Below, in pieces: positions 2,990 to 45,843 of a stretch of 64,000 nucleotides of DNA (the stretch's first letter is position 1; each line of letters starts with the position of its first letter). A program made the translations under genes and the position numbers. The DNA lies in contig JARGXX010000010.1 of NCBI GenBank assembly GCA_030374765.1, positions 806,001 through 870,000 on the forward strand. The letters run 5' to 3'. This DNA comes from Agarophyton chilense (Eukaryota > Rhodophyta > Florideophyceae > Gracilariales > Gracilariaceae). The notes beneath the pieces are model-generated. The model saw only the letters and a list, made by a program, of their open reading frames with translations. It had not been told where the DNA came from and did not search any database.

Positions 2990-3898
2990 ATGGGCCGTCG
3001 GAAGAGCTGGGACGTGATGGAGAACGAAACGCTCGTAAAGGCGTGGGTTGGGGGCATCAGAAGACCCCATCGCTGGAGTTGATCAAACGATAAAGGTTTT
3101 CATGGAGAGCGTTAAACAGCGCTCTATAGAGATAGGTTCGTAGCCCTTGCGGAAGTCGGAAGGCTAGTAAGGATGTCGAACAACAAACACTATTGCGCAA
3201 CACTTCGCAGATATGTCGGCAGATGTTCAGAAGTTTCGGGTAGCAATGTGCAGAGTTCATGCATCAAAACCGACCGGAGTATTAGACATAAACGTCGCTT
3301 CAATGGCAGTGGCCATCTATCTGGGAAAGACAAACACTATGTTCTACTATTTCAAAGACTTCGACGCCAAAAAGTGGCTGACTTTGACGCCTAGAAAGTC
3401 CTACGTCAGCACCCCAAGTGATGCGCCCCGCCATTCACTGAGTCCTCTAACAGCCGTTAGGATGTCCACGATGACGACGATAGCTCTTCCGAGACTGTCG
3501 AACGTACTACTCCCATAAAAAGGCTTAAAAGTAAAGAAGAAGAACGATTTAACAAAGGCAATCGTAGCGCGACGGTGGTCAAACAGGAAGAGATACGAGC
3601 GCAAGCTATCCGATATTTGGAATCGTTTGCAAAGAGCAAGTCAGAAATAATGGAAGAGAAAAACGGGATAGCCATCTGCTCTATCCCCAAATCCCGAGGC
3701 ACGCCGGCAACGGTAGCGTTCTTCGACGCGCTACGCGAAATCTATCTTTCAAACGCTCTAAAGCGGGCTCAGATTGCCAAAAGCGAGGTCACCAGCGCAA
3801 CGCAAGCCTCTATTGTAGAGAGGGTGGGTGGAACGGCGGCTACAAGCGCTGTGAAGGAGTCAGTCGCACCCCCAAAGGACCCTTCAGAGGCGAAGTGA
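2990..3898 (+). pseudogene. Myb/SANT-like (trihelix) protein of a PIF/Harbinger transposon, frameshifted
   Basis: The second gene typical of PIF/Harbinger transposons, whose Myb-like product binds DNA and helps bring the transposase to the element ends. The reading starts near 2990 with RKSWDVMENETLVKAWVG, then SEDPIAGVDQTIKVF and TIAQHFADMSADVQKF in other frames, giving a tryptophan-spaced trihelix domain. The tail from 3461 is open (acidic DDDDSSSETVERTTP, basic KRLKSKEEER, then a helical segment RYLESFAKSKSEIMEE and LREIYLSNALKRAQ) and stops at 3898. At least two frame changes and a stop interrupt the domain. It converges on the transposase gene, which ends at 4047 on the other strand. Family assignment is by sequence pattern; partner role is inferred from the family. 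Confidence 0.7.
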
Positions 3899-4046
3899 GG
3901 AGCTTTGATAAGGCAGAACGGCCCTATTGTGAACGAAATTTCCTTCGAGGGCATAAGTCCGGGGGAGAGCCCCGGGTTTCCCTTCTTTCTGGGCGCTTCG
4001 TGCCGTTTTTGCATGAGTAAAGGGTTGTTTATTGGAAAGAAGACGA

Positions 4047-4386
4047 CTAGAATACTTTAGTTTCCATTCCGAGGCCATCTTCTCCCTGCGACCGCCCCCA
4101 AATGTGGTGAATGAGGTCGTGCTTCAGGGAGAAGTGATCAACTGTACTGACGATTCTCGAACAACGTGAGGCTACCATCGAATACCATGTCTGAGAAGCA
4201 AAGCTGTCGCCTAGTAGTTCTAGAGTAACTTTGTAGGACTCCTATTTGAACCTCTGGCTCTTATTGAACATCGATACGGCCTCTTCGGAATGAATTTGAC
4301 CGTTCATGCTGCTTTCGTACGGGTACCTCTTGTCCTCCACAACCATGTTATCAAGTACAATGCACGCTTCCATAACATAAGCCATG
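4047..4386 (-). pseudogene. PIF/Harbinger transposase, C-terminal part (separated by Gypsy-A)
   Basis: Minus-strand translation from 4386 reads MAYVMEACIVLDNMVVEDKR, the conserved helix after the catalytic glutamate in Harbinger transposases (family form: ACIILHNMIVEDER). It ends with HFSLKHDLIHHIWGRSQGE and a stop at 4047-4049; one stop interrupts it. The upstream part of the same gene resumes at 7989. Joining the flanks across Gypsy-A at the CCATG duplication makes the frame run through, so this was one gene before the retrotransposon inserted. Confidence 0.8.
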
Positions 4387-4663
4387 TGTAACATAACGCT
4401 ACAAGCTTGTGAGCTATGTCACAGCTACAAAATTATTCCAACATAACGTGACCAGCGTCCAAGCCGTGTCACAGCTACAAGCTTAGTTATACGTACTTTA
4501 GCAATACTTAGTCTTATCCAAGTTACTTCAAGCCCTTTTCACTACCTTCAAGCTAGACTTTGGCACACCATAAAGCTCTGAGAGCTCTGCTCTATTCTGA
4601 CGAGGGGAGAAAGAGACCGGGAAGAGAAAACCCTTTTTCACAACTTTGATCTTTCGTATAACA
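4387..4663 (+). repeat. Gypsy-A 5' LTR
   Basis: Begins TGTAACATAACG after the CCATG target duplication and ends CGTATAACA, two bases before a primer-binding site. It contains an internal repeat of GTCACAGCTACAA (about 4420 and 4470). The boundary rests on the TSD, the TG..CA ends and the PBS, because no full 3' LTR survives for comparison. Confidence 0.65.
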
Positions 4664-4665
4664 TT

Positions 4666-4676
4666 TGGTAGCATCT
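4666..4676 (+). other. Gypsy-A primer-binding site
   Basis: TGGTAGCATC two bases inside the 5' LTR resembles the complement of the initiator methionine tRNA 3' end, the usual minus-strand primer for Ty3/gypsy elements. The same start occurs in Gypsy-B at 14802. Confidence 0.55.
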
Positions 4677-4721
4677 ATTTTCGTTCCTCGCCGCTGGAAC
4701 AACCATCTCTTTTCATCAATC

Positions 4722-5990
4722 ATGCCGCTAGCCTATCAATCAAGACTTGGTCGGCGGGTTGGTTCGTTGTCGCATTTGTCGAACGCCAGATCTGAGCGTG
4801 TCAACTCCAATCCGGTACTCACGCCAGACCCTAAAAAGATCTCTCACGCCATAGATCCTTCTCTTCTATTTGTCGCCCACAACACAACCAATTTAGTTCA
4901 CCCACCACCTGCCACCGCTGTTGTCAGCGCGGTTAAATCCTTGACTTCGGCAGAAGACCACCTGAAGCCTGCTTCACTCATTCAGATGATCAAGGAACAG
5001 CAAAATACAATGGCGCTGCTCGTTTCGCAAGTTGTAGCGATTTAAAACGAGATGGTTGCACAGCCTGCAACTCAATCTCCTTCATCCATTCCTGTAGAAC
5101 CAACCACAGGTACGCTTTCACCACCTACTCCAACGCATTTCACGAGCTCCGCTCCTTCTCCGTTGAGTATCTTTAAATCGTCGAACTTCTCTCCATACCA
5201 TGGCTGCGACAGCGAGAGAACATCAGTCAAAGTTCGATTGTTTATTTCAGGAATTCGGAAAGTCACTATCCTCTGTCCTAGTATCATAGCCACTCAGGGG
5301 TCCATATTGCTGCTTGTCTGTTAAAGAACAACGCGGATATGTGGATTCAAAGGGTCACTCGTGACGGAGTTTCATTCGGCACTCTCGAAGCGCTCCAATA
5401 TGCCATGGTGAAAGAATTCGTCCCCGTCAATGAGAGGGCTATGGCCAGACTCAATCTGATTAAGCTACATATCGGTGATGGTGCTCTAAAGACCCACATC
5501 ACAAAGTTTCGAGAGCTGGTAGAAATTTGTAGCACGCCAGTATGAGAGGTTTTTACCTTCTTCCAGTTAAGCCTCCCTACGCTTTTCAAGAAGAAGTTGT
5601 CCGAACGTTTTCCTGATGGCCAGCCCCCCACAATTTCTGAAGTGTACAACTACGTCTGTACTGTATATATTTTGGAAAAGTGGATTAACTCTTCTCAGAA
5701 CTCTCCTTCCAATCCAAAACAATCGAAATGAAAACAACGCAGTCAACGTAGACAGAAGAACACATCGGACAAGCCCTCAGACCCCACGCGGATGGGAAAG
5801 AACGCTGCATCAGAACGTTGGGTACCAGCCAAAAATTGGAACTCTTTGGAAAATAGCTTCTATCGCTCCAATGACCGCTGCATGAAGTGCGGGAAGAAGC
5901 CATTGAGCGATCTGCGTCATCCTTGCCGAAACGATTTCGCCGGTACTTCGACGCAGAGGCTCGTGAAGAACACAAAAAACTAGGAGCGCC
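4722..5990 (+). pseudogene. Gypsy-A gag (nucleocapsid at the end), frameshifted
   Basis: Structural Gag of a Ty3/gypsy element. It opens MPLAYQSRLGRRVG and runs to a stop at 5042, then continues in pieces: a retrotransposon-gag core at 5339-5545 (WIQRVTRDG, ALQYAMVKEFVP, ARLNLIKLHIGDG, FRELVEIC), and a degenerate knuckle near 5876 (CMKCGKKPLSDLRHPC, with H and C positions not matching CX2CX4HX4C exactly). At least three stops or frame changes separate these blocks, so it is not functional. Confidence 0.65.
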
Positions 5991-6039
5991 GCACGCATGT
6001 ACGGCTCCGCAGAGCGTTTCTAGGGCACCACAGCTCTCC

Positions 6040-7988
6040 ACCATCGACGCTCACCCTACAGGAGAGAATATTTACACAGGCTCCATGAATGGTCAGGACG
6101 TCGCGTTTCATTTGGACCCTGGCGCTTCACACGCCTTCATCTCCCTTAGCTCAGCTCGAATTTGCGATCTCTCTCTTCAGACTCCGCAGTATCCTTTAAC
6201 ATAACTGGGCCATTACATCACAGTCCCAATTCTCCTCGAAGCGCAGACAACCTTCTCCTTGGGTCAGTCATCCGTCCCAATCTCAGTCTACGTTATTGAA
6301 ATGAATGACGAGAACAATGGACTCTCTCTGATTACTGTTGGACGAGAGTGGCTCCGCGCCGCTCGCCCGCAGATAGACTGAGAATCATACAATCTAACCG
6401 TCAAGCGCGCAGACGGTTCGATGTTACAAGTCCTCCCATGTCAGCTTTCCCCGTCTCAATCGTGCCCGAAGAAGCCCGTCGTGGCCACGGTTTCTTACAA
6501 GCGCCTACGGCGTTTAGTGAAGCAAAAGGGTACAGAGCTGTACTCTCTACGTCTTAAGCCTTCCTCGTCCGTTGAATGCCACCCCGAGCTGGCAAACATA
6601 GTCGACGATTTCTCGGACGTCTTCAAGGAAGAACTCCCTTATCAATTACCTTCACAGCGAGAATATGATTCCGAAATCAACTAACTACGGGACCAACCAC
6701 CGCCTGTTCATCCTGTCATCCGGCTGCCTCCACTGTCTGACAATTCAATGGAAAATGTCTTGTACTGCATATTGATGACATCCTCATCTGCACCCTGTCG
6801 TTAGAAGAACACAAGAAGCACCTTCGAGAAGTTCTTTCTGCTCTCCGTAAGCATCAACTATACGCCAAGCTCAGCAAATGCGCCTTTGGAGCTTGCGAAG
6901 TGGACTTTCTAGGCTTCAAGGTATCCCATCAAGGTGTCTCTACTCAGGATCGTCTTATTTCCTCCATTCAGGACTGGCCTACTCCTACAACGTTAAAGCA
7001 CGGCCAACAGTTTGTTGGATTGGCTCACTTCTACTGCCGCTTCGTGAAAGATTACGCTGCTATACTTCAACCCCTTACCGATCTGCTTCGAGCCCATCGC
7101 TTTGAGTGGAATACACTCCATGAATCTGCGTTTGATAAGATCAGGCATGAGCTCACTACCACACCCGTTCTGGCCCACGAAGATCCGAACAAGTGCTTTA
7201 TTCTGGCAACTGATGCTTCTAAGCACGCAGTCGGCGCTACATTATCTCAGGACGGACATCCATTGCGTTTATGTCCCACCTGCTTTCCCCTGCAGAGTCT
7301 AACTACGACACAGGCGATCAAGTATTGCTTGCTGTCAGGATATAGCCCCGCATCTGGAGCTCATATCTTCGTGGACGTCAGTTTACTCTATTCACTGACC
7401 ATGATCCCATCCGAGTTTTGCAGTCTGAGCCTAAGCTGACAGGAAAACAGTGTCGTTGGCTCGACGAGATCCAAGAGCATACGTTCGACGTGGAGCCCAT
7501 CTCTGGGAAACGCAACATTGTGCCTGATGCGCTCAGCCAACGGCTGGACCATACCACGCCGCAGCTCTTGTCAATCACGGCTCAGATTCCAGGCTTACAA
7601 GATCGCGTACAACCCTTGTACGCCCAAGATCAGCTTGCATCCGATGCTAGTGCTTCCACCACAGACAGTGCTGACACAACTGTGTCGCGGAACCGGTTGA
7701 CCTCGCTTTTCAAGCTTGTCAATAACGTCAAATTCTAGACTAAAACAGGATCTTTCCGCCTCTACATACCTACTTGCAGCCTCCGTGACTAACTTGTTGT
7801 ACACTTCCACTGCCCGGGTCATGTCGGAGCCGAAAAGACATATTATACCGCGTCTTGGGGTATATATTGACGCATATGTACCAGAGCATCCTCAAGTTTG
7901 TGCGCAACTGTCGCACCTGCCAGATGAACAAGGTACCACACACTCATCCGCAAAGACTCCTTCAGCCTTTTTGATCTCACGTATTACA
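6040..7988 (+). pseudogene. Gypsy-A pol: protease, partial RT, RNase H, integrase zinc finger
   Basis: Protease at 6061-6204 contains LDPGASHAFISL; the family's D-S/T-G is DPG here. The pre-RT linker reads DFSDVFKEELPYQLP (6605-6650). RT then jumps from PPLSDNSM to LHIDDILICTLSLEEHKKHL (about 6760), so RT motifs 1-4 are deleted while the catalytic DD pair remains. Connection and RNase H follow (VDFLGFKVSHQGVS, HFYCRFVKDYA, FILATDASKHAVGATLSQ, then KQCRWLDEIQEHTFDVE and VPDALSQR in another frame). The integrase begins with GHVGAEKTYYTASW (about 7810) and breaks off. Several frame changes. Confidence 0.75.
7968..7988 (+). repeat. Gypsy-A 3' LTR stub
   Basis: About 20 bases matching the last bases of the 5' LTR, immediately followed by the CCATG duplication. 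It marks the true right end of the element after an internal deletion. Confidence 0.5.
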
Positions 7989-14861: not shown

Positions 14862-14924
14862 ATGGCCGCCGCGGGAGGCGTTGGGTCGATCCATCTCAAG
14901 CCGAACAAGCCAGACTCGTTCGAA
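14862..14924 (+). pseudogene. Gypsy-B gag, first 21 codons (cut by the DNA transposon)
   Basis: The ATG at 14862 lies in a good context (AAAATGGCC) and opens MAAAGGVGSIHLKPNKPDSFE. This matches the start of chromoviral Gag (..KPxxFxG). The frame is interrupted after GAA (14922-14924) by the DNA transposon and resumes with GTRDFLVVNTW at 25378. Joining the two gives one open gag. Confidence 0.75.
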
Positions 14925-14947
14925 CGTCAGTGTTCTCGGAATGCTAG
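14925..14947 (+). repeat. DNA transposon left TIR
   Basis: Begins CGTCAGTGTTCTCGGAATGC and matches the reverse complement of 25353-25375 at all but about two of the first 21 positions. Confidence 0.8.
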
Positions 14948-15121
14948 TTCAGTGGTCAAAAAAGGACGAATTGAAATGACCGAAAAACCCGTGAATTTAT
15001 CCAAATTTGGAGGTGTTAATTTCCGAAAATATTTTCATTCGTTCATTAGTGCTAGTTTGTATGGGAAGGAAAACTAGCACATATCTGCAGTTTTTCTAGT
15101 TTTGATGGAGGTAAAACTAGC
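14943..15121. repeat. Left subterminal repeats (AAACTAGC / GCTAGTTT)
   Basis: Four copies, at 14943 (GCTAGTT), 15051 (GCTAGTTT), 15071 and 15114 (AAACTAGC). The right end has AACTAGC at 25281 and AAACTAGC at 25329. Clustered short subterminal repeats in both orientations are the transposase-binding pattern of CACTA-type elements; binding here is inferred. Confidence 0.55.
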
Positions 15122-15206
15122 GTGAATCTTTCTGTCGCCGCAGTTCAAAGGTAAAAGTAGAGAAGTGGTGCAGGAGCAGATTCAATCTTTGTGCGCTCTA
15201 GATTGA

Positions 15207-18061
15207 CAGATTAGTACAAACAACCGAAAGGCTGACGAACTCATCACTCTCCTTAATGATCCTCACTTCTCCGAATCAACATTCCGGAACTCAGTCTCCT
15301 CCGCAAAGCAATGACTCGAGCTCCAGGCAGACCTCTTCCACCAGAGAATCAGGTCCATTGGTTTCGCCCCCTCCACCATCTTCGATCCCCACAAACGCTT
15401 CCCCGCAACCCTCTTCCAGAAAGAGGAAATCCATGTCCTCAAACAACAGCTCGCCCTCGCACACTTCAAGAACACCTTTTTCCACCCCATCTCCCAAACA
15501 TCCGCCTCCGGCTCCCCCGCCTTCGCACACCCCATGGCAGCCACCCTCGGCTCCAAAGTCGTCCCTGCACTCAAGACCGCCATCATGCAGTCCACAAAAG
15601 ATAACATCGTCTGGCATCTCCCTCACTCCACCGGTATCGACTCCTTCATCGTCCTCGTCCAACTCTACTCCGACAAGTCCTCTACCTCTCTTAAATCTTC
15701 TTCCATCACCTCCTACCCCCTCCACATCACCCTTCTCAACTTCTCCGACTCCTTTCGCCGCAAATGCATCTCCGACAATCTCACACTCCTCGGCTATCTT
15801 CCCACCTCCTTCACCCCAATCACTCCTTCTCCAGATGCAGATATCATCACTCATTCCTCCTCCATCCCCCGCCAAACAAAAATGGAACTCATACAGCAGA
15901 CCATCTCCTCCCTCCTTCAACCTCTCTTCTCTTCCGCCTCCCCGGTTTCCCCTTCCGCGACGCAGACGGCGTTCTTCGTCAATGCCACCCCATCATCACC
16001 AGCCACTGCGCAGACATTCCCGAGGAAAAGGATATTCTCGCCATCTCCCACGGCACCCGCCCCCAGCACCCCTGCCACAGATGCTCTGTCCCTCGCTCAC
16101 AACTCCACCAACAATCTCACGCCCATCCCCCTCGATCTCTTCCTCTCACCCTTGCAGCCCGCAACAAACACTTCTCCCTCCTCAAGGACTCCGAAGGAGC
16201 TCTCCTCGCCCGCAAGCCAAGAGTCTCGCGCAACTTCAAGGAACAAGCTCTCCAAGCACTCCACTCCCTTTCCCTCGCAAAATACCCCTCCCTCTTCGAG
16301 TCTTACCCCCTTTTCAACATCACCCCCCTCCTCACCCCATACAACATCTTCCCCTTCGAACCCCTCCACAACTTCCACCTCGGCGTTTCCAAACTCATCA
16401 AGCTCGCCGCCATCGAACGTCTCAGATCAGAACACCTCTTCACCACCATCAGCTCCACAAACTCCCGCCGTTCCTTCCACTACGTCCGCACCTCCATCCT
16501 CAAGCACTCCAACTTCATCCTCACCGCCATCGAAGATCATTCCCCAGCTACCGGGCTCCACATCGGCTTCTCTACTTCCGAAAGCGGGCAGTCCCTCAAC
16601 GGCTTCTTCACAACTGACGGCGTCCGGTGCATGCTGGAAGCAAAAGACTACCGCGCCCTCGACATGGTCTTCCCCTTCATCGGCGCCTTCTTCGACCGCT
16701 GCTGTGACGAAGCCAATTCCGCTCCCATCACAACCGTCTTCTCCAAGTACACAGACCTCCTCCTCACCTCCATGTGCTACAACTCCGTCCCCGAATGGAC
16801 CACTTCTCGTCTAGCCAAACTCGTCTCCCAAATCCATTCCTTCAAGCACAGAGCTGTCGATGTTCTCGGTCCATACCATACCTCCAACCTTGGCACCCTC
16901 AAATTCAACCTCCTCGATCACATCGTAGACGACATTCGACGCTTTGGGGGTCTCCACTTCAACGATTCAGGCATCTTCGAACAAGCCCATACCCTCTTCA
17001 AAGCACATTACTCCCGAACCTCCAAGCGCAGACCCACCGCGCACAACGAAACCATCCGTGCCATCGAACGCCCCGATGCCGTCAACAATTGGATTTCTCT
17101 CTCCGCTGATCCTTCCGTCACCTCATCCTCCCATGCCCCTCCTCCTCCCTTCCAAGCCCGCAAACCAAGTTTCGTCCGTGATGGCAAGCACACCTCCTTT
17201 TCCGATCTCATCACCGCTCACAAATTCCTTCGAGCAAACCCCCACTCAACAATCTCTTCCCTTCAGGACCTCTTCTCCCCAGACACTATCGCCATCATCT
17301 CACAGATTGGAACCCTCGCACTCCCCTCCTTCGTCACACTCACACTCGAAACACTAGCTCTCAACCAGGACTCCCCCACTCTCCGCCAAACCCGTCTCAC
17401 ATTCGTCAATTACGCACACGTCGTCGGCGGCTTCACCCCGACCCTAGACGACTACATCGCCGATCGAAACGAGCTCGCCGTCAAAGATCCCCCTCTCCCA
17501 CTCATTCAACGTATCTTCGCTGCTCCCTCCTTCGGTCCCTCTAAAACCCCAAAGTTCTCCCGCATCCTCGTTGCCGGTTCCAGCTTCTCCAACCCCACTC
17601 CCACCGCCTGGGTCTGCAAGCTCAACTCTCTTCTTCGCTTCACCACCCCTTCTTCTCCTTCCACTCATAACGAGTTCGCCTTCGTTCAGTTCCTCGAACT
17701 CGTTCCACCCCAGGATCAAGTCGATGTCTCTCTCAATTGCATCTGCCTCCGATGGGCAACAGACGACGAACAAAACCACACCGCCCACCCCCTTCCTATC
17801 TCAAACACTTCCAACTCCGACAACGTCTCCCCCTGGTTCGGCCTCGTACCATCCTCTTCCATTCTCGGCCCCATTCATGTACTTCGCCAAAACTACCCCG
17901 CACCCCCCTTCACCCCTCGATTGCACTGGCGCTTCCATCGATTTTACCTCAACAGATTCTACCGAGACCCAACTGCCAAGCCCTACTTCTCCAACACCAC
18001 CACTGGTGGCACAACACCACCACTGGGTGGCACCCATAATAATACCTCCCAAGGCACATGA
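15207..18061 (+). pseudogene. Plavaka/CACTA-like transposase, disrupted by a stop and a frameshift
   Basis: Would move the surrounding element. Reading begins upstream of 15231 with ADELITLLNDPHFSESTFRN, meets a TGA at 15312, and continues in the same frame with ELQADLFHQRIRSIGFAPST. It then gives the Plavaka-type core VLVQLYSDKSSTSLKS..YPLHITLLNFSDSFRRKC..LTLLGYLPTSF. Between about 15890 and 15950 the frame drops by one base and continues FPFRDADGVLRQCHPIITSH, a CHRC pair, FEPLHNFHLGVSKL, LLDHIVDDIRRFGGLHF and a long C-terminus ending at 18061. The uninterrupted downstream part is about 720 codons. Similarity to Plavaka/Tnp2-like transposases is by motif order only; I could not place all three catalytic acids. 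Confidence 0.7.
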
Positions 18062-18148
18062 TCCAATAAAATAGTCACCACTGCTTTTCTTCCATAGCCG
18101 ACCCCCATCTTGCTCCACCTCCTTACCCCCTTATCCCCCCGTACCTTA

Positions 18149-19972
18149 TCACTCTCCCACTCCTTGCCTACTCCCCAACTCTAAGCGCTTGAACCGTGGT
18201 TTTTCTGGTCCACATGACGCTATATAGCAATCTAACACCGCTCCAAGTCTTCTCGTGAGATTCTCCATGAAAAACTCCTCCCTTATCGCCAGATAGATTT
18301 TCTCTCTCGACGGTATCCATAGCCCAACCGTCGCGATTCTCTCCTTATTCCCACTCACATCTCTACGATTCCCTCCACAGAATCCATCATTCTCAAACTC
18401 CTCAGCATACTCATCCTTCACCATGTTCCAGGCAACCCTCAATATGTCTTCAACAGCCAGTGGCAGAAACCTCCCAAACAGCGTCGAGAACAAAAGTTGC
18501 CTTTGCCCTCCCCGCCCAACGTCTCTATCCATCGTGGTCACCACACATCCAATCCATGCATCAAGTCGCGCAAGATGCATCACCGTCCCATCCACATACT
18601 GCCTTTCTCCATATCTGTGACTCTCTACCGCGTAGCCCATAAACTCCTCCAACACTTTCAACGACACCTGATTTCGAAAATACATATCTGCCTCACCAAA
18701 GTCCTCCAAGTTCTCAGACACCTTCGATCCAGAATAAGTAATATCTTCAATCGCCCTCGTTCTCCACGCACACAGCTTACCTCTCCCATCTTCCCCCGAC
18801 CCCATCAACCTCTCCTGCACCTCCTCACTCTGCTTCTTCAACTCCGCCCAAAGCTCCGTCCCTTCAGTCACCTTAGCTCGTTTCGCGATCAAATCATATC
18901 CAAGCATGGGAAACAGCTTATCACGCGCTGCTCGCTTCCGCACCCCAACCACATCGCTCAATGTCTGCTTCATCCTCTGTCTCAAGTACCTATCCGCACT
19001 TACATTTTCCACGCACTCCTCTCTCCTCCCCGCTTCCCTTATCGACTCCCATTTCTCTCCCATTAACTCAGTCTCTACCACGTGCTTCAACAACAAATGG
19101 CTCCCGCCCTCTGTCGACGGCGTATACGGTTTCATCTCATATGCAACCTCAATTGGACATCTCGGAACCATTTCCTTCTCTCCCACCACAAACATAATTT
19201 CCTCCCTACTCTCCCCAACCGCCTCACTTCTATTCTTCCAGCTTCGACCCACATTCTCGGTGTCGAAACAAAGTTCCGATGCCTCCAGTTTTCCATAATG
19301 AAGAATCCTATCATACACATGACGTGCAAATCCATAAAAGCATTCCTGCACTCCAATGTCATACTTTCGTCGCGGCGTCACGCCTCCCTCCCCCCTCCCT
19401 TCCCCAGCGATTCTACCTTTCAACGCCTCCCTCAAACTCTCAATCAGCACATTCTGCTGCTTCATTTCCTCCCTCGCCCGATCCAGCTCCGTTTGGGTCA
19501 TTTTCAAAATCACCATCACACTGTAGCTGTCTTTCTTCATACGTCCCATTTGTCCAATCAACACATTCATCTTCTCAATTAGCATCGACCGCGGCAACAA
19601 ACCTATGTCATCATCATTTGCTTCATCTTCCACTATACGGACGGCGTTCTCCACGACATTTAAATTCGCATTCTCCCCGTTATCATTATTCCTTGTGAAT
19701 ACAATGTTTCTCCTTACTCGCATACCTTCCGGCGTCCTTCGCCTTGCGTTCACCTCAACCCCTTCAACTCCCAAACCCACCCCTCTCCTCGGTGGCAAAC
19801 GCTCGAAATCTTCTCCCTGATGAGAAAGAACTGCTGCTCTTCCATCGCCTTCCTCTCCTGAACCACGTGTTCTCCCTCCAGCAAACCCCCTTCTCCCCCC
19901 CTCAATCACATGCACTTCTCTGCTTTCCCTTTCGTCTATCGCTCTTCTTCCTGTAACTCGAACACTCCCCAT
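18149..19972 (-). CDS. Transposon-encoded 607-aa protein with central coiled coil, unknown function
   Basis: Open from ATG at 19972 to 18149, ending 88 bases from the transposase stop in convergent orientation. The first ~110 residues are basic and Gly/Arg-rich (RRGFAGGRTRGSG). Residues ~125-190 form a probable coiled coil (LIEKMNVLIGQMGRMKK, LKMTQTELDRAREEMKQQN, LIESLREALKG). The C-terminal two thirds look globular (QECFYGFARHVYDRILHYG, FGEADMYFRNQVSLKVLEEF, LFGRFLPLAVEDILRVAW). No family recognised. It is in the same frame as the basic ORF upstream (20042-20803), with only stops at 20042 and 19976 between them, so the two may once have formed one gene. A TnpA-like DNA-binding role is speculation. 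Confidence 0.65.
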   Translation of the reverse strand: MGSVRVTGRRAIDERESREVHVIEGGRRGFAGGRTRGSGEEGDGRAAVLSHQGEDFERLPPRRGVGLGVEGVEVNARRRTPEGMRVRRNIVFTRNNDNGENANLNVVENAVRIVEDEANDDDIGLLPRSMLIEKMNVLIGQMGRMKKDSYSVMVILKMTQTELDRAREEMKQQNVLIESLREALKGRIAGEGRGEGGVTPRRKYDIGVQECFYGFARHVYDRILHYGKLEASELCFDTENVGRSWKNRSEAVGESREEIMFVVGEKEMVPRCPIEVAYEMKPYTPSTEGGSHLLLKHVVETELMGEKWESIREAGRREECVENVSADRYLRQRMKQTLSDVVGVRKRAARDKLFPMLGYDLIAKRAKVTEGTELWAELKKQSEEVQERLMGSGEDGRGKLCAWRTRAIEDITYSGSKVSENLEDFGEADMYFRNQVSLKVLEEFMGYAVESHRYGERQYVDGTVMHLARLDAWIGCVVTTMDRDVGRGGQRQLLFSTLFGRFLPLAVEDILRVAWNMVKDEYAEEFENDGFCGGNRRDVSGNKERIATVGLWIPSREKIYLAIREEFFMENLTRRLGAVLDCYIASCGPEKPRFKRLELGSRQGVGE

Positions 19973-20041
19973 TCTTTACCTTGCACGCTCTCTCCTTTCT
20001 TCCACGTAATCCAAGTTCGCCCCCTCCCATCTTTCCGCCTG

Positions 20042-20803
20042 TTACCCCGCGGTAACTCCAACACTCTCTCCTTCTGTTCTCTCTCGAACGACTCTTGCGC
20101 CCGCGATTAGACCACTACTGGGTCCACCTATTCTACCCTCCCCACCACGGCTACTCTCTATTCTCCCTTTCTGTATCTCATCATCACCGTCCTCTTCCCT
20201 CATACCCGTAAACGATGCCCCTGCTTCTTCAACGCCTCTGAGGCGGGATCCACGTTCTCCGATCATTCTCTCTCCCTCCTTACGCCCCTTCGTCCTCTCA
20301 TTCGGAATCTCTTCACCTCCTTCAGGTGCAGAGCATGGATTTACCGGCTCCACATCAGCTGAAGACGTGAGTACAGCACTTAGAGTCCGCTCGGATGCAT
20401 CCCCTCTCCTTGTCCTCCCTAGAGCTCTGCTCGCCCTCCCCTGCAATCCACTTCTAGGTACACGCGTGCGGTTGCTTCGCACGCCATCCCGTTTTCCATC
20501 GCCGCTCCGCACCATCTCTCCCGTAGGCGACGTGATTTGCTCCGTACGCGACTTGATTTGCTCTGCACTCTCCTCCGTCACCGTCTCCTTTGCGCGAACA
20601 GCCTTTCCTTTGCCCCCACTCGCCTCTCCTTCCCCACCATCTTGCCTTGATCTACCTCTCAGGCGCACGCCTCCCTTCTCTCCACTCGCGCCCTGGAGCC
20701 TACGCCCCTTGTCCCTTCTGCCCTCCGCATCCCCTCCATGCCGCCGTGATTTTGTACCGCGCCAGCTAGTGTTCTCGCTTCTCGATTTGCGCTTCGGAGC
20801 CAT
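20042..20803 (-). CDS. Transposon-encoded basic low-complexity protein, about 253 aa
   Basis: I chose the ATG at 20803 (MAPKRKSRSENTSWRGTKSR), because the upstream in-frame ATG at 20908 adds an atypical leader; the open frame ends at 20042. The protein is rich in Arg, Gly, Glu and Ser with few hydrophobic residues, has nuclear-localisation-like clusters (APKRKSR, RRHGGDAEGRRDKGRR) and no recognisable domain. It is probably disordered. It lies 69 bases upstream of the 607-aa protein in the same frame and may be its N-terminal part (via an intron or after loss of a sense codon) or a separate gene. Confidence 0.5.
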   Translation of the reverse strand: MAPKRKSRSENTSWRGTKSRRHGGDAEGRRDKGRRLQGASGEKGGVRLRGRSRQDGGEGEASGGKGKAVRAKETVTEESAEQIKSRTEQITSPTGEMVRSGDGKRDGVRSNRTRVPRSGLQGRASRALGRTRRGDASERTLSAVLTSSADVEPVNPCSAPEGGEEIPNERTKGRKEGERMIGERGSRLRGVEEAGASFTGMREEDGDDEIQKGRIESSRGGEGRIGGPSSGLIAGARVVRERTEGESVGVTAG

Positions 20804-21127
20804 GGTTGTAGAGAGAGAGAGCGATCGTGGTATGGTCTTCCACGCGTTGCAATGCGATGGATGGGAGAGAAGCTTCGAAACATTCTGCTTCCAAAAATAT
20901 ACCTCCACCCTTTTCGTGTTCTCAGAAAACCCCCAAACTTTTCAGATATTTTAAATATGCGCTCGAACGCACCAGATATTGGGAAAGTATTCTCCTTTGG
21001 TGTACATGACTTTCCTTTAGCATATGTACTACGTCACGCTTTGACGTTAAATGTAGCGACAAACATAGTAAAAGCCCACAATATCTGGTACACTACAATG
21101 AAGTAAAGTAACAAAAGCGATGCACTT
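20804..21127. other. Spacer between the SET gene and the basic-protein gene
   Basis: AT-richer than its neighbours, with no gene. It would carry the end of the SET transcript and the promoter of the basic-protein gene on the minus strand; no clear element stands out. Confidence 0.4.
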
Positions 21128-21862
21128 TTAATCGATTACTATGACTGGCGTGTTATTCATACTCCAGATATAATCTGTCCCATAATCCGCGAACAGCTCC
21201 TCTCCTATTTCTATATCTCGAATTGCTTGCACAGAAAGCAATCTATAGTCTCTCAACTGAAATGGGGTCCGCCCCGTCCCCGGAGTTCTGATGACCCGAA
21301 CATTTGCAGTTCGGCGTCTCATTAACCCGTCTTCAACCGCATCCCTGTCCCTATCCCCTTCCACATACTTGGGGTCGTTAATTGTTCCCCCCAAGCAAAA
21401 TGGAGCAGGGACAATCCACACCGGAATAAGAGACACCCCACTAATTCTTCCTGGTAGCTTATGAAACACTTCCCCTCGAACGCTTATCTCCATCGCGTAC
21501 TGCCCAAAACGATCAGCAGTCGCTTTCAATAGCCCCCCTCCGTATGCCTTATGAACGTCCTTCCGCTTTGAAAGATTATGGTACACCAAAGTCCCGTAAA
21601 AGTAACAAACAGTCTCACCTTGTATCACCCGGCGTGTTGTGTACACACCAACTCCAGCATTCGGGTGCCTTATCGTCGACTTTGCAATCCGACAACCACA
21701 TACTGTCGCCTCCACTGCCAGAATAGCATTCCAATCCAACAGTGACATCTTTCCTTGAAAACTTCTTGGCCACTCATACAGCGCCTGCCGTCGCCTAATC
21801 TCCGATATATTCTTATCCTGCCACATGGAGGAGAGAAAATCCACGATATGGGGTGGAAACAT
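21128..21862 (-). CDS. SET-domain protein (probable protein-lysine methyltransferase)
   Basis: A 244-aa reading with the main SET landmarks. The AdoMet-binding N-terminal strand AGVGVYTTRRVIQGETVCYF is at about residues 69-88. A degenerate NHxxxPN-type region, LGGTINDPK followed by TANVRV, is at 158-189. The C-terminal ELFADYGTDYIW is at 222-233, matching the catalytic ELxxDY. SET enzymes use AdoMet to methylate lysine, usually on histones; substrate here is unknown. The pseudoknot asparagine block is altered (IND for NHS), so activity is uncertain. The ORF starts 10 codons after the methyltransferase TGA and in the same frame, so it may be its C-terminal half. No pre-SET cysteine cluster is visible. 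Confidence 0.8.
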   Translation of the reverse strand: MFPPHIVDFLSSMWQDKNISEIRRRQALYEWPRSFQGKMSLLDWNAILAVEATVCGCRIAKSTIRHPNAGVGVYTTRRVIQGETVCYFYGTLVYHNLSKRKDVHKAYGGGLLKATADRFGQYAMEISVRGEVFHKLPGRISGVSLIPVWIVPAPFCLGGTINDPKYVEGDRDRDAVEDGLMRRRTANVRVIRTPGTGRTPFQLRDYRLLSVQAIRDIEIGEELFADYGTDYIWSMNNTPVIVID

Positions 21863-21892
21863 CTGATGCTCGGGAAATCCGGTAGGTGTTTT

Positions 21893-24259
21893 TCAGGACT
21901 TCGAACGCTTTATGACGACGTCCGGAAACAAGCATGTCACTCGAGTCACAGCGTTCCGAACATCTTGCGTTATATGAATGTCCGTCTCGTTGTTCCGCAT
22001 GCATGACGCAAATTTCACTGTAGCGGCGTGCTTCGCATGAGCAAAGCACTGCAGATCTGGCTCCCACCCTAGAAACTGACGGTGCTTTTCCAGTTCCATG
22101 CATGCCATGACCGTTGAAAATATTCCGGCGAAGAGGTCCACCACTATGTCTCCCGGCTCAGAAAACCTGCTGATGAGCTCCTTCAGCAAAGCGCGTGACT
22201 TCTGTTCCGCCCGCACTTTCTGATACGTAACTGCTCCTTTGGCATTCTTCCTTCTCCATAGAAGTGTTTCACCATTCGACATGGGAGGCACTTGGCCAAT
22301 AACGCTATGGTAACCCGGATATCGCGATGGTACATAGCTGAAGTTCTCATAGTTCACCATTCCATGTTGTTCGGCGTAAGACAACCCGCTGCGAACTCCA
22401 TGAATGGCGTACACTGTTCCGTGAAACAGGGAGCACGAACTACGTCCGGGATTACGCATCGGATTGCCTTGAGAGCGAATGAAGTGCAGCTGGACCTTGT
22501 CCACGACAAACGACCTGCTCTTCTGTCCATTCTCATCCTTTGCACCAACTCGACCCAACACTTCTTTCCATTCGTTCACCTGCTCAATCGCGCAGAATAT
22601 AACGAAATGCCCTCCCGGACGCAGAAGTTTAGAGATGAGCTTCGCCGTCTTCACCATGTCTTGCCGGTTAAGAACGTCGTACCAGCTGTTTTTCCTGTTC
22701 TTTTTCGCACGTATATTATACGGCGGGTCCGTGAGAACCAACTGCACTTTCCCTATCGGAGAGACCCCATTGCTGCGCAATGTCTCGTCAATCTCCACCA
22801 GGTTCTCGAAAGTACAATTGTACATTCGACAGTGCTTATCCATCTCCGACTCGCACTTTTGGAGAGACATTATATCATTCAGAGAGGTAAGGTCGTGAGG
22901 CGGCAGAATATCCACCGACTCAGATTCGACCGACCTTGGTCCAGCTGTGGAAGAATGCTGACCAACACCCATGTTCTCTTCCTCATTCCCGGTCCCACCC
23001 TCCACTCCCTCTCCACCCTCCACCGCCGGAGCCTCCGAATCTTTCTCAGGGGGTAAAACTTCTATCTCGTCTTCTTCCATAACCATAGTAGGTTCCGCCT
23101 TTGTCGCAGCCACCACTTCTACCTCCACACTCCCTCGCAGCTTTAGTGGCGATATGTATTCTGAGATGGTAGAGATAAGAGAGTTCGAGAAGCAGTCAAA
23201 TCTCTCCGCAAACACTCTAGGCAAAGTGTATGTAAACGGTTTTAGAACGTCCCATCTTTCCGGAGCTGATATAGAGTAAAGCTGCTCATTCACCACCACT
23301 TTGTGCAGGTCAGCGAGAAACTCTTTGGCCAACATACGAAGTGGAGTGTCAACGTACTCCGGCAGGTTCCACGCCCATGGGACGACATCCTCCTCCAATA
23401 AAGTATGGTTTCTACCAGGAAGGAGTCGTTGGGCCATGTCCTTGTGAGAGAACCCATCCCTTCTGTTTCCGATTGCCTGGAACTGCATATCAGAATATCG
23501 TAGATGGATAAAGGGCAAAACCATGAATTCCACGCCAGGGAATCCCAAATACTGGGCGAAGCTGTCCCACGCGTTATTGACGAGCTGCACACCAAAGCCC
23601 ACACGCTGAGCTCCTGGTTTGTCATAAATCGCCACCTTCGAAAATGGCGTATCGTAGGTTCTGTCCCGCTTTCTTCGCTTACGGGAGACTCTTCTCTTCT
23701 CCATAGAGACCGACTGAATACAAATGAGGAACAGCAACCTCTGGAACATTGTCGGGAAGTCGGTCGCGAATGGAGCCCGGCTTTTGCTCGCCTTCTTTCG
23801 GGTTGTATCCAGACCTTTGAAAAACTCTGTCAAAGTGACATTCTTCGGGATGCCCTTGAACTCCACCGCCTCGTACGCGTTCCAAAAGTCCCTCACGCGC
23901 CTATCTGGGTCCCCATCCCTTATATCCAGCAACCTCGCCGAGAAATAATTCTGACAGTTCGAGCCCCTCATTCCTACAACTCGGAGCTCATCTTCTGTGT
24001 AACTGGTGTGGTTGGGACCTAGGAGAGTATAAAAAAACTTCGCGGTTTCCGGTAGGATGTGGCGATTGGCAGTTGCGAAATCGATGAATGCAGTGTGCCC
24101 CACTTTTCGCGGCTCATCTTCCTCCCGCCTCGTTGATGCATAACGATCACGCAAATCCAGACACCCCCTGATAACTTCATCCCCCGTACCAAACAGTTTA
24201 CGCATTTCGAAGGTGTCTGCCACAGGAGATGAAGAAGTTCTCGTGGGTTCTGGAGCCAT
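21893..24259 (-). CDS. Bacterial-type beta-class DNA amino-methyltransferase (N6-adenine or N4-cytosine)
   Basis: A 788-aa protein. Residues 1-380 form an unrecognised domain with a basic cluster, RRVSRKRRKRDR, at 189-200 (possible nuclear signal). Residues 380-450 are an acidic linker. The C-terminal domain matches the N6/N4 DNA methylase family (PF01555 type): catalytic motif IV VLTDPPYNI at 508-516, LLRPGGHFVIF at 545-555, and AdoMet motif I VDLFAGIFST at 707-716 followed by FLGWEPD. Catalytic motif before AdoMet motif is the beta-class order. DPPY favours adenine but does not prove it. The order rules out alpha-class Dam-like enzymes, and the PF01555 fit argues against MT-A70. ATG at 24259 is the first start. 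Expected to modify DNA in the nucleus, perhaps the element itself. Confidence 0.85.
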   Translation of the reverse strand: MAPEPTRTSSSPVADTFEMRKLFGTGDEVIRGCLDLRDRYASTRREEDEPRKVGHTAFIDFATANRHILPETAKFFYTLLGPNHTSYTEDELRVVGMRGSNCQNYFSARLLDIRDGDPDRRVRDFWNAYEAVEFKGIPKNVTLTEFFKGLDTTRKKASKSRAPFATDFPTMFQRLLFLICIQSVSMEKRRVSRKRRKRDRTYDTPFSKVAIYDKPGAQRVGFGVQLVNNAWDSFAQYLGFPGVEFMVLPFIHLRYSDMQFQAIGNRRDGFSHKDMAQRLLPGRNHTLLEEDVVPWAWNLPEYVDTPLRMLAKEFLADLHKVVVNEQLYSISAPERWDVLKPFTYTLPRVFAERFDCFSNSLISTISEYISPLKLRGSVEVEVVAATKAEPTMVMEEDEIEVLPPEKDSEAPAVEGGEGVEGGTGNEEENMGVGQHSSTAGPRSVESESVDILPPHDLTSLNDIMSLQKCESEMDKHCRMYNCTFENLVEIDETLRSNGVSPIGKVQLVLTDPPYNIRAKKNRKNSWYDVLNRQDMVKTAKLISKLLRPGGHFVIFCAIEQVNEWKEVLGRVGAKDENGQKSRSFVVDKVQLHFIRSQGNPMRNPGRSSCSLFHGTVYAIHGVRSGLSYAEQHGMVNYENFSYVPSRYPGYHSVIGQVPPMSNGETLLWRRKNAKGAVTYQKVRAEQKSRALLKELISRFSEPGDIVVDLFAGIFSTVMACMELEKHRQFLGWEPDLQCFAHAKHAATVKFASCMRNNETDIHITQDVRNAVTRVTCLFPDVVIKRSKS

Positions 24260-24432
24260 TTATGTACGTGTTCAAACAACCTCACGGGCGGTCGTCACGA
24301 GAGCCTGAGTGAAAGAGAGCAGCGGGTGCGGGTGGGTGCGGGTGGGTACGGAAAGATTGTGAGTACGGTTGAGGAGCGCGCACGGAAGAACGGTTGTTGC
24401 GGAACGACTTCGCAGCTATCCTGGTTGCATTC

Positions 24433-24861
24433 TGTCGGCCGTCAGAGGAGCGCTTCGACTCCATCGGGGGTCCCGATGAAGTCCCCGCGCACCTCTGTCG
24501 GCCGACAGAATGCACCGTGTACACCTGGGCGTCCTAAAAATTACAAAATTATATGTATTATGTCGGCCGACAGAGGTGCGCGGGGACTTCATCGGGACCC
24601 CCGATGAAGTCGAAGCGCACCTCTGTCGGCCGACAGAGTGCACCGTGTACACCTGGGCGTTCCAAAAATATATGTATTATGTCGACCGACAGGGGTGTGC
24701 TGCGACTTCATCGGTGGACCGATGAAGTCGCAGGGCACCCCTGTCGGCCAACAAATACGCCATAACATCACGCATGATGCGTTTCTGAGATATTGGTCGA
24801 CTGACGGCCGACAGAGGTGCGCTCTGACTTCATCGGGGGTCCCGATGAAGTGACGCCAGGG
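24433..24861. repeat. Tandem array of hairpin-forming repeats upstream of the methyltransferase
   Basis: Three nearly perfect palindromes of about 75 bases (24433-24507, 24561-24635, 24680-24753) and a damaged fourth (24802-24861). Each arm begins TGTCGGCCGACAGAGGTGCG and the centre contains GACTTCATCGG..CCGATGAAGTC. Spacers of about 45-53 bases are themselves repeated (TGCACCGTGTACACCTGGGC, then ATATGTATTAT). Period is about 119-129 bases. The array ends about 175 bases upstream of the methyltransferase start, so it may contain its promoter or be a binding or modification target. Confidence 0.85.
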
Positions 24862-24882
24862 AGACGCGGGGAGCCGGCTGGG

Positions 24883-25122
24883 ATGAAGAAGGGGAGAGAG
24901 GAATGGAAAGGGGGAGGAGTTGGAGAGAGTCGGCTGAAGAAGAGGAGGGTTGGTAAGGATGTGGAGAAGAAGGGTGGGAATGTGTGTGTGGTGGGGCAGC
25001 CGGGTGTGAGGAACTTGAGCAGTGGGGAGGTGGACGAGGTTGAGAATGCGGTGGTGGACTTCTTCAACCTCAATTACCCTCCCGGTGGAACGCTGGAGCC
25101 TAGTAAGCGAAAGGGCCAGTAA
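24883..25122 (+). CDS. Small basic ORF at the right end of the DNA transposon
   Basis: Reads MKKGREEWKGGGVGESRLKK, a basic segment with KKRRVGKDVEKK, then a tidy C-terminus GEVDEVENAVVDFFNLNYPP and GGTLEPSKRKGQ before the stop at 25122. It is divergent from the methyltransferase across the hairpin array. The 79-aa length and basic N-terminus could suit a nucleic-acid-binding peptide or the first exon of a longer gene. Codon composition (G-rich sense strand) matches the element's other cargo genes. Not recognised; it may be non-coding. Confidence 0.35.
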   Translation: MKKGREEWKGGGVGESRLKKRRVGKDVEKKGGNVCVVGQPGVRNLSSGEVDEVENAVVDFFNLNYPPGGTLEPSKRKGQ

Positions 25123-25352
25123 GGAGGTAGAAGGTACTGACGACTGCCTTGGTATGGATCTCCACCTAGAGCGGTCAAAAGTGACCAGTAAACTGCAAAT
25201 GCAGATTAAACTGCATTAAGTGGTCAAAACACTAAGATGCATGGAGTTCTTATTTCCAAAATTTTTTTTTTCAGGTGCCGAACTAGCGCAATCTGCAAAA
25301 TTCTTAGATTTTTTGGCTTTTTATTTACAAACTAGCTATCTAGCACACTTAT

Positions 25353-25375
25353 CGAGCATTCCAAGAACACAGACG
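25353..25375 (-). repeat. DNA transposon right TIR
   Basis: Ends GAGCATTCCAAGAACACAGACG on the plus strand, the inverted match of the left TIR. It is followed directly by the resumed gag frame (GAA GGA ACT). Confidence 0.8.
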
Positions 25376-25377
25376 AA

Positions 25378-43546: not shown

Positions 43547-43756
43547 GAATCCGTTCTCGGACTTTTGGGTTGGTCATCCACGTGTTGGAATATCTCTTGG
43601 AAGAGGAAGCACCGTCGTGAAGATTTGTTGTAGTGGTCCCCTTTGGAAAGGGTAGAATTGGTTTTTATTTTTGTTTTGTGTTACGTCATCCGTTCTCCGG
43701 GAATCTCGTGATCGAATTTCATCGTTACCCCGAATCGTCGGTGTCGTGTCTGAAGC

Positions 43757-45787: not shown

Positions 45788-45843
45788 ACTTGGGAGTCTC
45801 CCCTGCGGGAGGGGCGTCTTCTAAGCCGGAGTTGAAGACGCCC
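45778..45843 (+). promoter_or_regulatory. Putative -1 frameshift signal at the Gypsy-C gag/pol junction
   Basis: Gag ends TCG AAA AAC TAA, the same CGAAAAACTAA string as in Gypsy-B, and pol is open in the -1 frame through it. Downstream are a small hairpin (CTCCC/GGGAG, 45798-45811) and a perfect 10-bp stem GGGCGTCTTC/GAAGACGCCC (45812-45821, 45834-45843). Spacing is longer than in Gypsy-B. Confidence 0.45.

What the first reader, a model, noticed from the sequence alone, without database searches (positions are those of the whole stretch)
14925..25375. A DNA transposon that carries a DNA methyltransferase and a SET-domain protein
A 10.45-kb element with TIRs, subterminal repeats and a Plavaka/CACTA-like transposase also encodes a bacterial-type beta-class DNA amino-methyltransferase (DPPYNI, then VDLFAGIFST), a SET protein (ELFADYG) and two unknown proteins. 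One mobile element would control both DNA and histone methylation, perhaps to mark or protect its own copies or the transposase-binding sites. Cargo origin cannot be host neighbourhood, because the whole block lies inside the gag gene of an LTR element. I do not know of a described family with this gene set.
Basis: partly seen in the sequence, partly recalled or inferred. Interest (0 to 1): 0.92.

Follow-up and report, generated by a model that had tools for sequence, protein, structure and literature searches.

The report
Transposon encoding a DNA-plus-histone methyltransferase fusion
A large family of jumping DNA in an unnamed eukaryote (probably a fungus) carries a gene that joins a bacterial-type DNA methyltransferase to a histone-type methyltransferase in one protein, which suggests, but does not prove, that the jumping DNA writes its own chromatin marks.

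Summary
Confirmed and enlarged. Window 14925-25375 is a TIR-bounded Plavaka-type DNA transposon inserted in the gag gene of an LTR element, with a 2-bp target duplication. It is a deletion derivative (10,451 bp); two full-length copies measure 18,467 and 18,774 bp. The two "unknown proteins" are one 923-aa ORF in copy C2. The genome holds at least 57 copies of the methyltransferase; 12 of 13 examined insertions have matching 2-bp duplications. A 1247-aa protein, lost from the window copy, is encoded head-to-head. A second methyltransferase-SET family (35% identical) sits near contig ends, at the one locus read beside an OrsD/RecQ-like helicase; 16 of 18 other relics also pair methyltransferase with SET. 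The methyltransferase is of the bacterial/phage beta-class adenine kind. No C5-methyltransferase was detected in the host. Best reading: a transposon-borne dual DNA/histone writer, most likely anti-silencing. Activity is untested; SAM motif I is altered (FAGTF) in the transposon family. Ten searches of one open-access library listed no description of it.

The parts
14925..14947 (+). left terminal inverted repeat (CGTCAGTGTTCTCGGAATGCTAG)
   Evidence: same left end in 9 of 10 other copies examined, not found in C12a; 2-bp duplication outside it
25353..25375 (-). right terminal inverted repeat
   Evidence: matches the left TIR with few changes; C2 and C117 end in the same way
14923..14924 (.). 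target-site duplication AA, left copy (right copy 25376-25377)
   Evidence: flanks TTCGAA / AAGGAAC; empty site restores the gag frame
14943..15121 (.). left subterminal repeats (ACTAGC at 14943, 15051, 15073, 15116; GGTCAAAA at 14954)
   Evidence: motif positions
25173..25336 (.). right subterminal repeats (GGTCAAAA at 25173, 25222; ACTAGC at 25282, 25331)
   Evidence: motif positions
15220..15226 (.). 7-bp direct repeat at which the window copy lacks about 640 bp of the transposase gene
   Evidence: in 9 of 10 other copies the matched flanks (window 15226 and 15220-15222) lie 635-636 bp apart; in the tenth, C12a, only the right flank was matched
15315..18061 (+). Plavaka-type transposase gene, broken (deletion plus change of frame; 1137-aa frame in C2 and C117)
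   Evidence: PF18759
18149..20941 (-). ORF2, one reading frame of 923 aa in C2, split in the window copy and in C117; no Pfam family
21128..21892 (-). SET part of the MTase-SET fusion gene
   Evidence: PF00856 E 1.1e-5; continuous with the MTase in C2 and C117
21893..21895 (-). stop codon that splits the fusion in the window copy (a Trp codon stands here in most copies read)
   Evidence: W at this place in 17 of 20 loci, stop in the window copy, joint not found in 2
21896..24259 (-). N-terminal region of unknown fold plus beta-class amino-methyltransferase (DPPYNI; FAGIFST here, FAGTFST in 15 of 20 loci)
   Evidence: PF01555; phrog_67 E 1.6e-27 for the C2 copy; motifs
24413..24851 (.). array of palindromic repeats, variable in length between copies, lying between the divergent MTase-SET and 1247-aa genes in longer copies
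   Evidence: two units fold with z -13.4 and -11.2
24851..24852 (.). junction where about 7.2 kb (1247-aa gene and further sequence) is missing in the window copy
   Evidence: C2 and C117 continue past the array and rejoin window 24850-25375 about 7.2-7.3 kb later

Best explanation
Shown: a family of Plavaka-type (CMC) DNA transposons with 2-bp target duplications, 6.7-18.8 kb between paired ends; members of about 18.5-18.8 kb encode a transposase, an ORF2 of no known family, a 1043-aa fusion of a bacterial-type beta-class DNA amino-methyltransferase with a SET domain, and a head-to-head 1247-aa protein. Inferred: the fusion protein is a trans-acting dual chromatin writer. It would bind element DNA or chromatin (through its own N-terminal region, ORF2 or the 1247-aa protein), place N6-methyladenine in the DNA and methylate neighbouring histones, and so keep element copies in a transcriptionally permissive state in which transposase can be made and bind the subterminal repeats. 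The palindromic array between the two divergent genes would be a shared control region. Deletion derivatives such as the window copy would use the products of longer copies.
For: Many dispersed copies with the same ends and target duplications. Fusion ORF open in C2 and C117, Trp at the joint in 17 of 20 loci. The same fusion, at 35% identity over 1067 aa, is kept in a second family: MTase part 51%, SET domain 43%, N-terminal part 27% identical, 21 of 23 full-length places without a stop. 16 of 18 further MTase relics have a SET relic just downstream. So the pairing is older than either family and was kept. MTase nearest to adenine-specific enzymes: DpnA-type E 3e-14, CcrM E 3e-8 in PDB. 34 of 39 scored copies of the 1247-aa gene lie head-to-head with an MTase. 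Of 18 unicellular eukaryotes profiled in PMC12695648 (abstract and passages), those with robust 6mA carry it between H3K4me3-marked nucleosomes in permissive chromatin, which makes a 6mA plus SET pair a plausible permissive writer. No PF00145 C5-methyltransferase was found in this genome although 10 of 14 prokaryote controls rang, and CpG observed/expected is 0.98 in the element.
Against: No activity, expression or methylome data. Neither of the two full-length copies read has all four frames open: C2 has two stops in the 1247-aa gene, C117 a broken ORF2. The transposon copies have FAGTFST in SAM motif I where the second family has FAGTGST, so the transposon-borne MTase might be impaired. The SET domain lacks the usual NHSC motif (recalled) and reads GGTINDPKY; in the whole C2 protein SET scores 21.3 bits, just under Pfam's 22.4, while the window copy, family B and the C2 SET part alone exceed it. 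Within the family pN/pS is 0.63 for the MTase and 0.92 for SET at very low divergence: weak evidence for selection. The 6mA of PMC12695648 is made by AMT1 (MT-A70), not by a beta-class enzyme, and there H3K4me3 inhibitors did not change 6mA in the one species tested. The histone target, if any, and the direction (permissive or repressive) are guesses.
Confidence: 0.45

Rival explanations
1. Self-silencing or host-serving: the fusion writes repressive chromatin at element copies and chromosome ends, limiting transposition or helping to keep subtelomeres silent, as the rotifer N4CMT/SETDB1 pair does.
For: Rotifer N4CMT, also of bacterial origin, deposits 4mC at transposons and is thought to work with histone H3K9 methyltransferases (PMC8885841, abstract and passages). 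Family B sits near contig ends (8 of the 9 places whose contig length is known are within 12 kb of an end, and 9 of 9 point inward) and is mostly intact and homogeneous.
Against: The gene is carried by the transposon itself in at least 57 copies; no chromodomain or other known reader was found by Pfam.
Confidence: 0.25
2. Transposition control: adenine methylation of the ends or of the palindromic array couples transposase binding to replication, as Dam does for some bacterial transposons (recalled); SET is secondary.
For: Adenine-type beta-class enzyme; compact subterminal repeats and a palindromic array.
Against: The fusion to SET kept in two families and in 16 of 18 relics is not explained; no transposase was recognised among the ORFs looked at beside family B at C25.
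Confidence: 0.12
3. Catalytically dead or passenger cargo: an old captured gene whose MTase lost activity (motif I FAGTF) and which rides along or serves only as a DNA- or SAM-binding scaffold.
For: Motif I change in the transposon family; weak pN/pS signal; many copies with stops.
Against: Frames open in C2 and C117; motif DPPYN present in 20 of 20 loci; SET core and MTase core conserved between the families; FAGTGST intact in the family B copy read.
Confidence: 0.18

Closest known systems
TET-positive Plavaka transposons (PlavakaB) of Agaricus bisporus and Gymnopus confluens (Kojima 2025, PMC12730594; abstract, sections 3.2 and 4.2 and passages read)
   Same: Plavaka-type transposase, 2-bp target duplications, termini of similar kind, carries a DNA-modifying enzyme
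   Different: there the cargo is a TET/JBP dioxygenase; here a DNA amino-methyltransferase fused to SET. PlavakaB termini are CATCA..TGATG, here CGTCA..AGACG. The passages shown for the word methyltransferase concern other things; none names a DNA amino-methyltransferase carried by Plavaka
HarbingerS and MuDR transposons of Phytophthora carrying a SET gene (cited in PMC12730594, passage seen; original Repbase Reports not seen)
   Same: DNA transposon encoding a SET-domain protein
   Different: other transposase superfamilies; no DNA methyltransferase mentioned in the passage
N4CMT of bdelloid rotifers (PMC8885841, abstract and passages)
   Same: bacterial-derived permuted N6_N4 methyltransferase in a eukaryote, linked with histone marks at transposons
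   Different: a host gene fused to a chromodomain, not carried by a transposon, not fused to SET; those authors state that it has no eukaryotic homologs
Bacterial and phage beta-class adenine methyltransferases (DpnA, CcrM, phrog_67)
   Same: catalytic domain and motif order IV then I
   Different: mostly 21-31% identical over most of the domain, higher only in shorter best segments; whether any of those loci has a SET gene was not looked at

Membership tests
Plavaka transposons (CMC/CMCT) | Plavaka transposase domain PF18759 | tested here: met
   E 1.9e-22, 80.4 bits against cut-off 26.3 on copy C2
Plavaka transposons (CMC/CMCT) | 2-bp (PlavakaA) or 2-3-bp (PlavakaB) target duplications | tested here: met
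   12 of 13 insertions
PlavakaA or PlavakaB subgroup | termini TGT..ACA (PlavakaA) or CATCA..TGATG (PlavakaB) | tested here: not met
   termini are CGTCA..AGACG, one base from PlavakaB at the left end and two at the right; so filed as Plavaka-type by transposase only, not as PlavakaA or PlavakaB
TET-positive Plavaka | encodes a TET/JBP dioxygenase | tested here: inconclusive
   no Pfam, PDB, NCBIfam or PHROG support for the 1247-aa protein; PF20515 rang nowhere, controls included; HTD..FHAGAGY..RYH motif seen by eye only
beta-class DNA amino-methyltransferase | PF01555 domain with the DPPY motif ahead of the FxGxG motif | tested here: met
   PF01555 E 2e-16 (window) and 3e-18 (C2); order DPPYN then FAG; but the second glycine is F in the transposon family
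SET domain family | PF00856 above its cut-off | tested here: met
   26.2 bits window, 26.1 family B, 24.4 C2 SET part; but 21.3 in the whole C2 protein, below 22.4
active SET lysine methyltransferase | NHSC motif (recalled) | tested here: not met
   GGTINDPKY at this place in 19 of 20 loci, GGTINGPKY in one
active SET lysine methyltransferase | histone substrate | not testable with these tools
   needs an enzyme assay
rotifer N4CMT | chromodomain fusion | tested here: not met
   no chromodomain in the Pfam scans
telomere-linked RecQ-like helicase elements (neighbour of family B) | helicase with OrsD/C2H2 region near a chromosome end | tested here: inconclusive
   OrsD PF12013 E 2e-7, DEAD E 3e-12, Helicase_C E 3e-10 at the one locus read, C25, 3.4 kb from a contig end; no TTAGGGTTAGGG in the first 9.5 kb

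The most novel reading that the evidence does not exclude
Selfish elements of a eukaryote without detectable cytosine-5 methyltransferase have built their own portable epigenetic system: a 'DNA-write plus histone-write' fusion enzyme, used by a Plavaka transposon and, separately, near chromosome ends beside a telomere-linked helicase, with a divergently encoded partner (ParB-like and dioxygenase-like motifs by eye) as candidate DNA reader and eraser. It would put a non-native 6mA mark on element copies and couple it to histone methylation.
Probability: 0.2. Interest if true: 0.93.

Novelty: new variant of a known kind. Interest (0 to 1): 0.82.

Why it matters
Transposons that carry one epigenetic enzyme (TET/JBP, SET) are known. 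A transposon whose single protein joins a DNA amino-methyltransferase to a SET domain is, as far as ten searches of one open-access library show, undescribed. It offers a direct test of whether mobile DNA can install a bacterial base modification in a eukaryote and couple it to histone marks, and native long reads of one strain would answer it. The second family near contig ends suggests that the same kind of writer serves two different compartments.

Tried and rejected
Structure prediction of parts of the 1247-aa protein: tool switched off, so its ParB-like (DGHHR) and dioxygenase-like (HTD..FHAGAGY..RYH) readings rest on motifs seen by eye and recalled; Pfam, PDB, NCBIfam, PHROG and phage searches gave no support, nor did viral contigs. 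Close relatives of the SET part in viral contigs: none. TET/JBP via PF20515: nothing rang, controls included, so no conclusion; MT-A70 likewise. CpG decay as a sign of cytosine methylation: not seen, C>T is not CpG-biased (0.0040 per site and copy at CG, 0.0045 at CC, 0.0037 at CT, 0.0024 at CA). Host gene capture on the right side of full elements: a 300-aa ORF weakly like ketopantoate reductase (E 0.044, below cut-off) and a hydrophobic frame without family; left open. RNA genes in the window: none found. Selection within the family: too little divergence to be telling, and the 10 other copies were the best MTase matches, hence biased to intact ones. Host identity: not determined; 'fungus' is an inference from the Plavaka transposase and the OrsD-helicase, and Plavaka also occurs outside fungi.
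Full report
Anatomy of the window copy. The element spans 14925-25375 (10,451 bp), begins CGTCAGTGTTCTCGGAATGC, ends GCATTCCAAGAACACAGACG and is flanked by AA on both sides; joining the flanks minus one AA gives an open gag frame through the site. Short repeats ACTAGC and GGTCAAAA cluster within about 200 bp of the ends. The transposase frames match Pfam Plavaka, and the 1137-aa open frame of copy C2 matches with E 1.9e-22.

Family in the genome. The window lies in a 79.8-Mb assembly of 135 contigs. The methyltransferase has 57 scored matches, the window itself and 56 others at 92-98% identity (213 candidates, only the best scored); left and right ends were found 40 times each, the cap of the tool. 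Eighteen pairs of ends span 6.7-18.8 kb; 9 of these 18 contain a methyltransferase from the list and 9 do not, so deleted derivatives are common. Of the 57 methyltransferases, 25 have a listed left end at the expected distance, 21 a listed right end, 9 both; since the end lists were capped these are lower bounds. Target duplications of 2 bp (CT, CA, AA, AT, TA, TG) agree at 12 of 13 insertions: 8 of 10 as printed, one of the 10 read by eye, one of the 10 not matching, plus C2 and C117 and the window copy.

The full-length element. Copies C2 and C117 measure 18,467 and 18,774 bp. Their order is: transposase (+, 1137-aa frame), ORF2 (-, 923 aa in C2; broken into shorter frames in C117), MTase-SET (-, 1043 aa in both), palindromic array, a 1247-aa ORF (+; open in C117, two stops in C2), then about 3.8 kb with weak or no family matches. 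So neither of these two copies has all four frames open; I did not read others in full. The 1247-aa gene has 39 scored copies, 92-97% identical to the query copy; 34 of 39 lie within 2.5 kb head-to-head with an MTase, and 34 of 57 MTases have it. The window copy lacks about 640 bp of the transposase gene between 7-bp repeats and about 7.2 kb on the right side, and has stops in ORF2 and at the MTase/SET joint. The array varies in length between copies, and two single units fold into hairpins with z of -13.4 and -11.2 against shuffles.

The fusion protein. In 17 of 20 loci a tryptophan codon stands where the window copy has a stop; in two of the 20 the joint was not recognised. DPPYN is present in 20 of 20; motif I reads FAGTFST in 15 of 20, FAGSFST in one, FAGIFST in the window, and was not found in three. 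PF01555 matches C2 with E 3.3e-18; SET in the whole C2 protein is just under its cut-off, 21.3 against 22.4 bits, and above it in the window copy, in family B and in the C2 SET part alone. The nearest solved structures are DpnA-type and CcrM adenine methyltransferases. Phage records (48 with a match, 15 listed) give 26-29% identity; viral and prokaryote contigs mostly 21-31% over most of the domain, higher in shorter best segments; plasmids three short matches at 52% over 58 residues. This points to N6-adenine rather than N4-cytosine, but beta-class specificity cannot be told from sequence with certainty.

A second family. A search with PF01555 gave 116 hits, among them 1130-1141-aa frames near contig ends. 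The one read in full (C25) is again MTase-SET, 35% identical over 1067 aa, with FAGTGST intact. One search lists 23 full-length places, 21 without stops, 18 of the 23 at 99-100% identity. For nine places, some of them partial, whose contig length is known, eight lie within 12 kb of a contig end, one 55.6 kb away, and nine of nine point inward. Places on contigs of unknown length were not tested; three (C32, C89, C87) lie near a contig start on the minus strand and would be exceptions unless those contigs are short. Beside the C25 copy lies an ORF with OrsD and RecQ-like helicase domains. No TTAGGGTTAGGG was found in its first 9.5 kb, so 'subtelomeric' rests on contig ends. Eighteen further PF01555 places I assigned to neither family; 16 of the 18 have a SET relic just downstream on the same strand. 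The MTase-SET pairing is therefore older than either family.

Host context. No C5-methyltransferase (PF00145) was detected in the genome while 10 of 14 control genomes rang, all prokaryotes; introns could hide a split gene, though exons should still match. CpG observed/expected is 0.98 in the element and 0.99 in the right half of the window, and C>T changes are not concentrated at CpG. A 5mC eraser would have little to erase here, which speaks against a simple TET-like role of the 1247-aa protein.

Mechanism. Shown: mobility history, gene linkage, fusion, deletion derivatives. Inferred: the fusion writes DNA and histone methylation in trans. I favour a permissive (anti-silencing) outcome because Kojima reads the TET cargo of related elements as escape from silencing (PMC12730594, section 4.2 read) and because, of 18 unicellular eukaryotes in PMC12695648 (abstract and passages), those with robust 6mA have it beside H3K4me3 nucleosomes. 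That 6mA is made by AMT1, a different enzyme, and inhibiting H3K4me3 did not change it in the species tested, so the support is by analogy only. A repressive outcome, as in rotifers (PMC8885841, abstract and passages), remains possible. The altered motif I of the transposon family, the atypical SET motif and the weak pN/pS signal (0.63 MTase, 0.92 SET, 0.68 transposase, 0.91 ORF2, 0.66 for the 1247-aa gene) are real weaknesses.

Novelty. Ten literature searches of one open-access library listed no paper whose title or abstract start describes a transposon with an MTase-SET fusion. I saw sections or passages of five papers (PMC12730594, PMC13297926, PMC8885841, PMC12695648, PMC11244446) and only listings of the rest. 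Most subscription journals and Repbase Reports are not in that library. Work of Iyer and co-workers (2014, 2016) on TET/KDZ transposons and on adenine methylation, recalled as relevant, was not read: the 2016 paper is not held, the 2014 paper was not asked for.

Noticed in passing
L043 (G000:C25:1-9500) 3427-6621 and L148: Second MTase-SET family near contig ends, at C25 beside an OrsD/RecQ-like helicase ORF; 23 full-length places, 21 without stops.
   Followed up: partly
G000, 18 PF01555 places outside both families (for example C21:491047, C73:257595): MTase relics, 16 of 18 with a SET relic directly downstream: other, mostly degenerate lineages of the same fusion.
   Followed up: partly
L040 4464-8000 (1179 of 1247 aa): Divergent cargo protein with DGHHR and HTD..FHAGAGY..RYH motifs by eye; no family match in the libraries tried.
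   Followed up: partly
L042 585-3085, minus strand: Right part of full elements has a 300-aa ORF weakly like ketopantoate reductase (below cut-off) and a hydrophobic frame; possibly captured host genes.
   Followed up: partly
G000: No PF00145 C5-methyltransferase detected in an 80-Mb eukaryote rich in this transposon, with CpG near expectation.
   Followed up: partly
window 43754-50115: Long frames of a second retroelement (gag-like, reverse transcriptase and integrase by eye) downstream of the LTR element that was hit by the transposon.
   Followed up: no
G000:C77:804614-813109: Two MTase copies lie 0.8 kb apart in opposite orientation with identical scores, and left ends lie on either side in mirror order; a palindromic duplication or an assembly artefact.
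   Followed up: no
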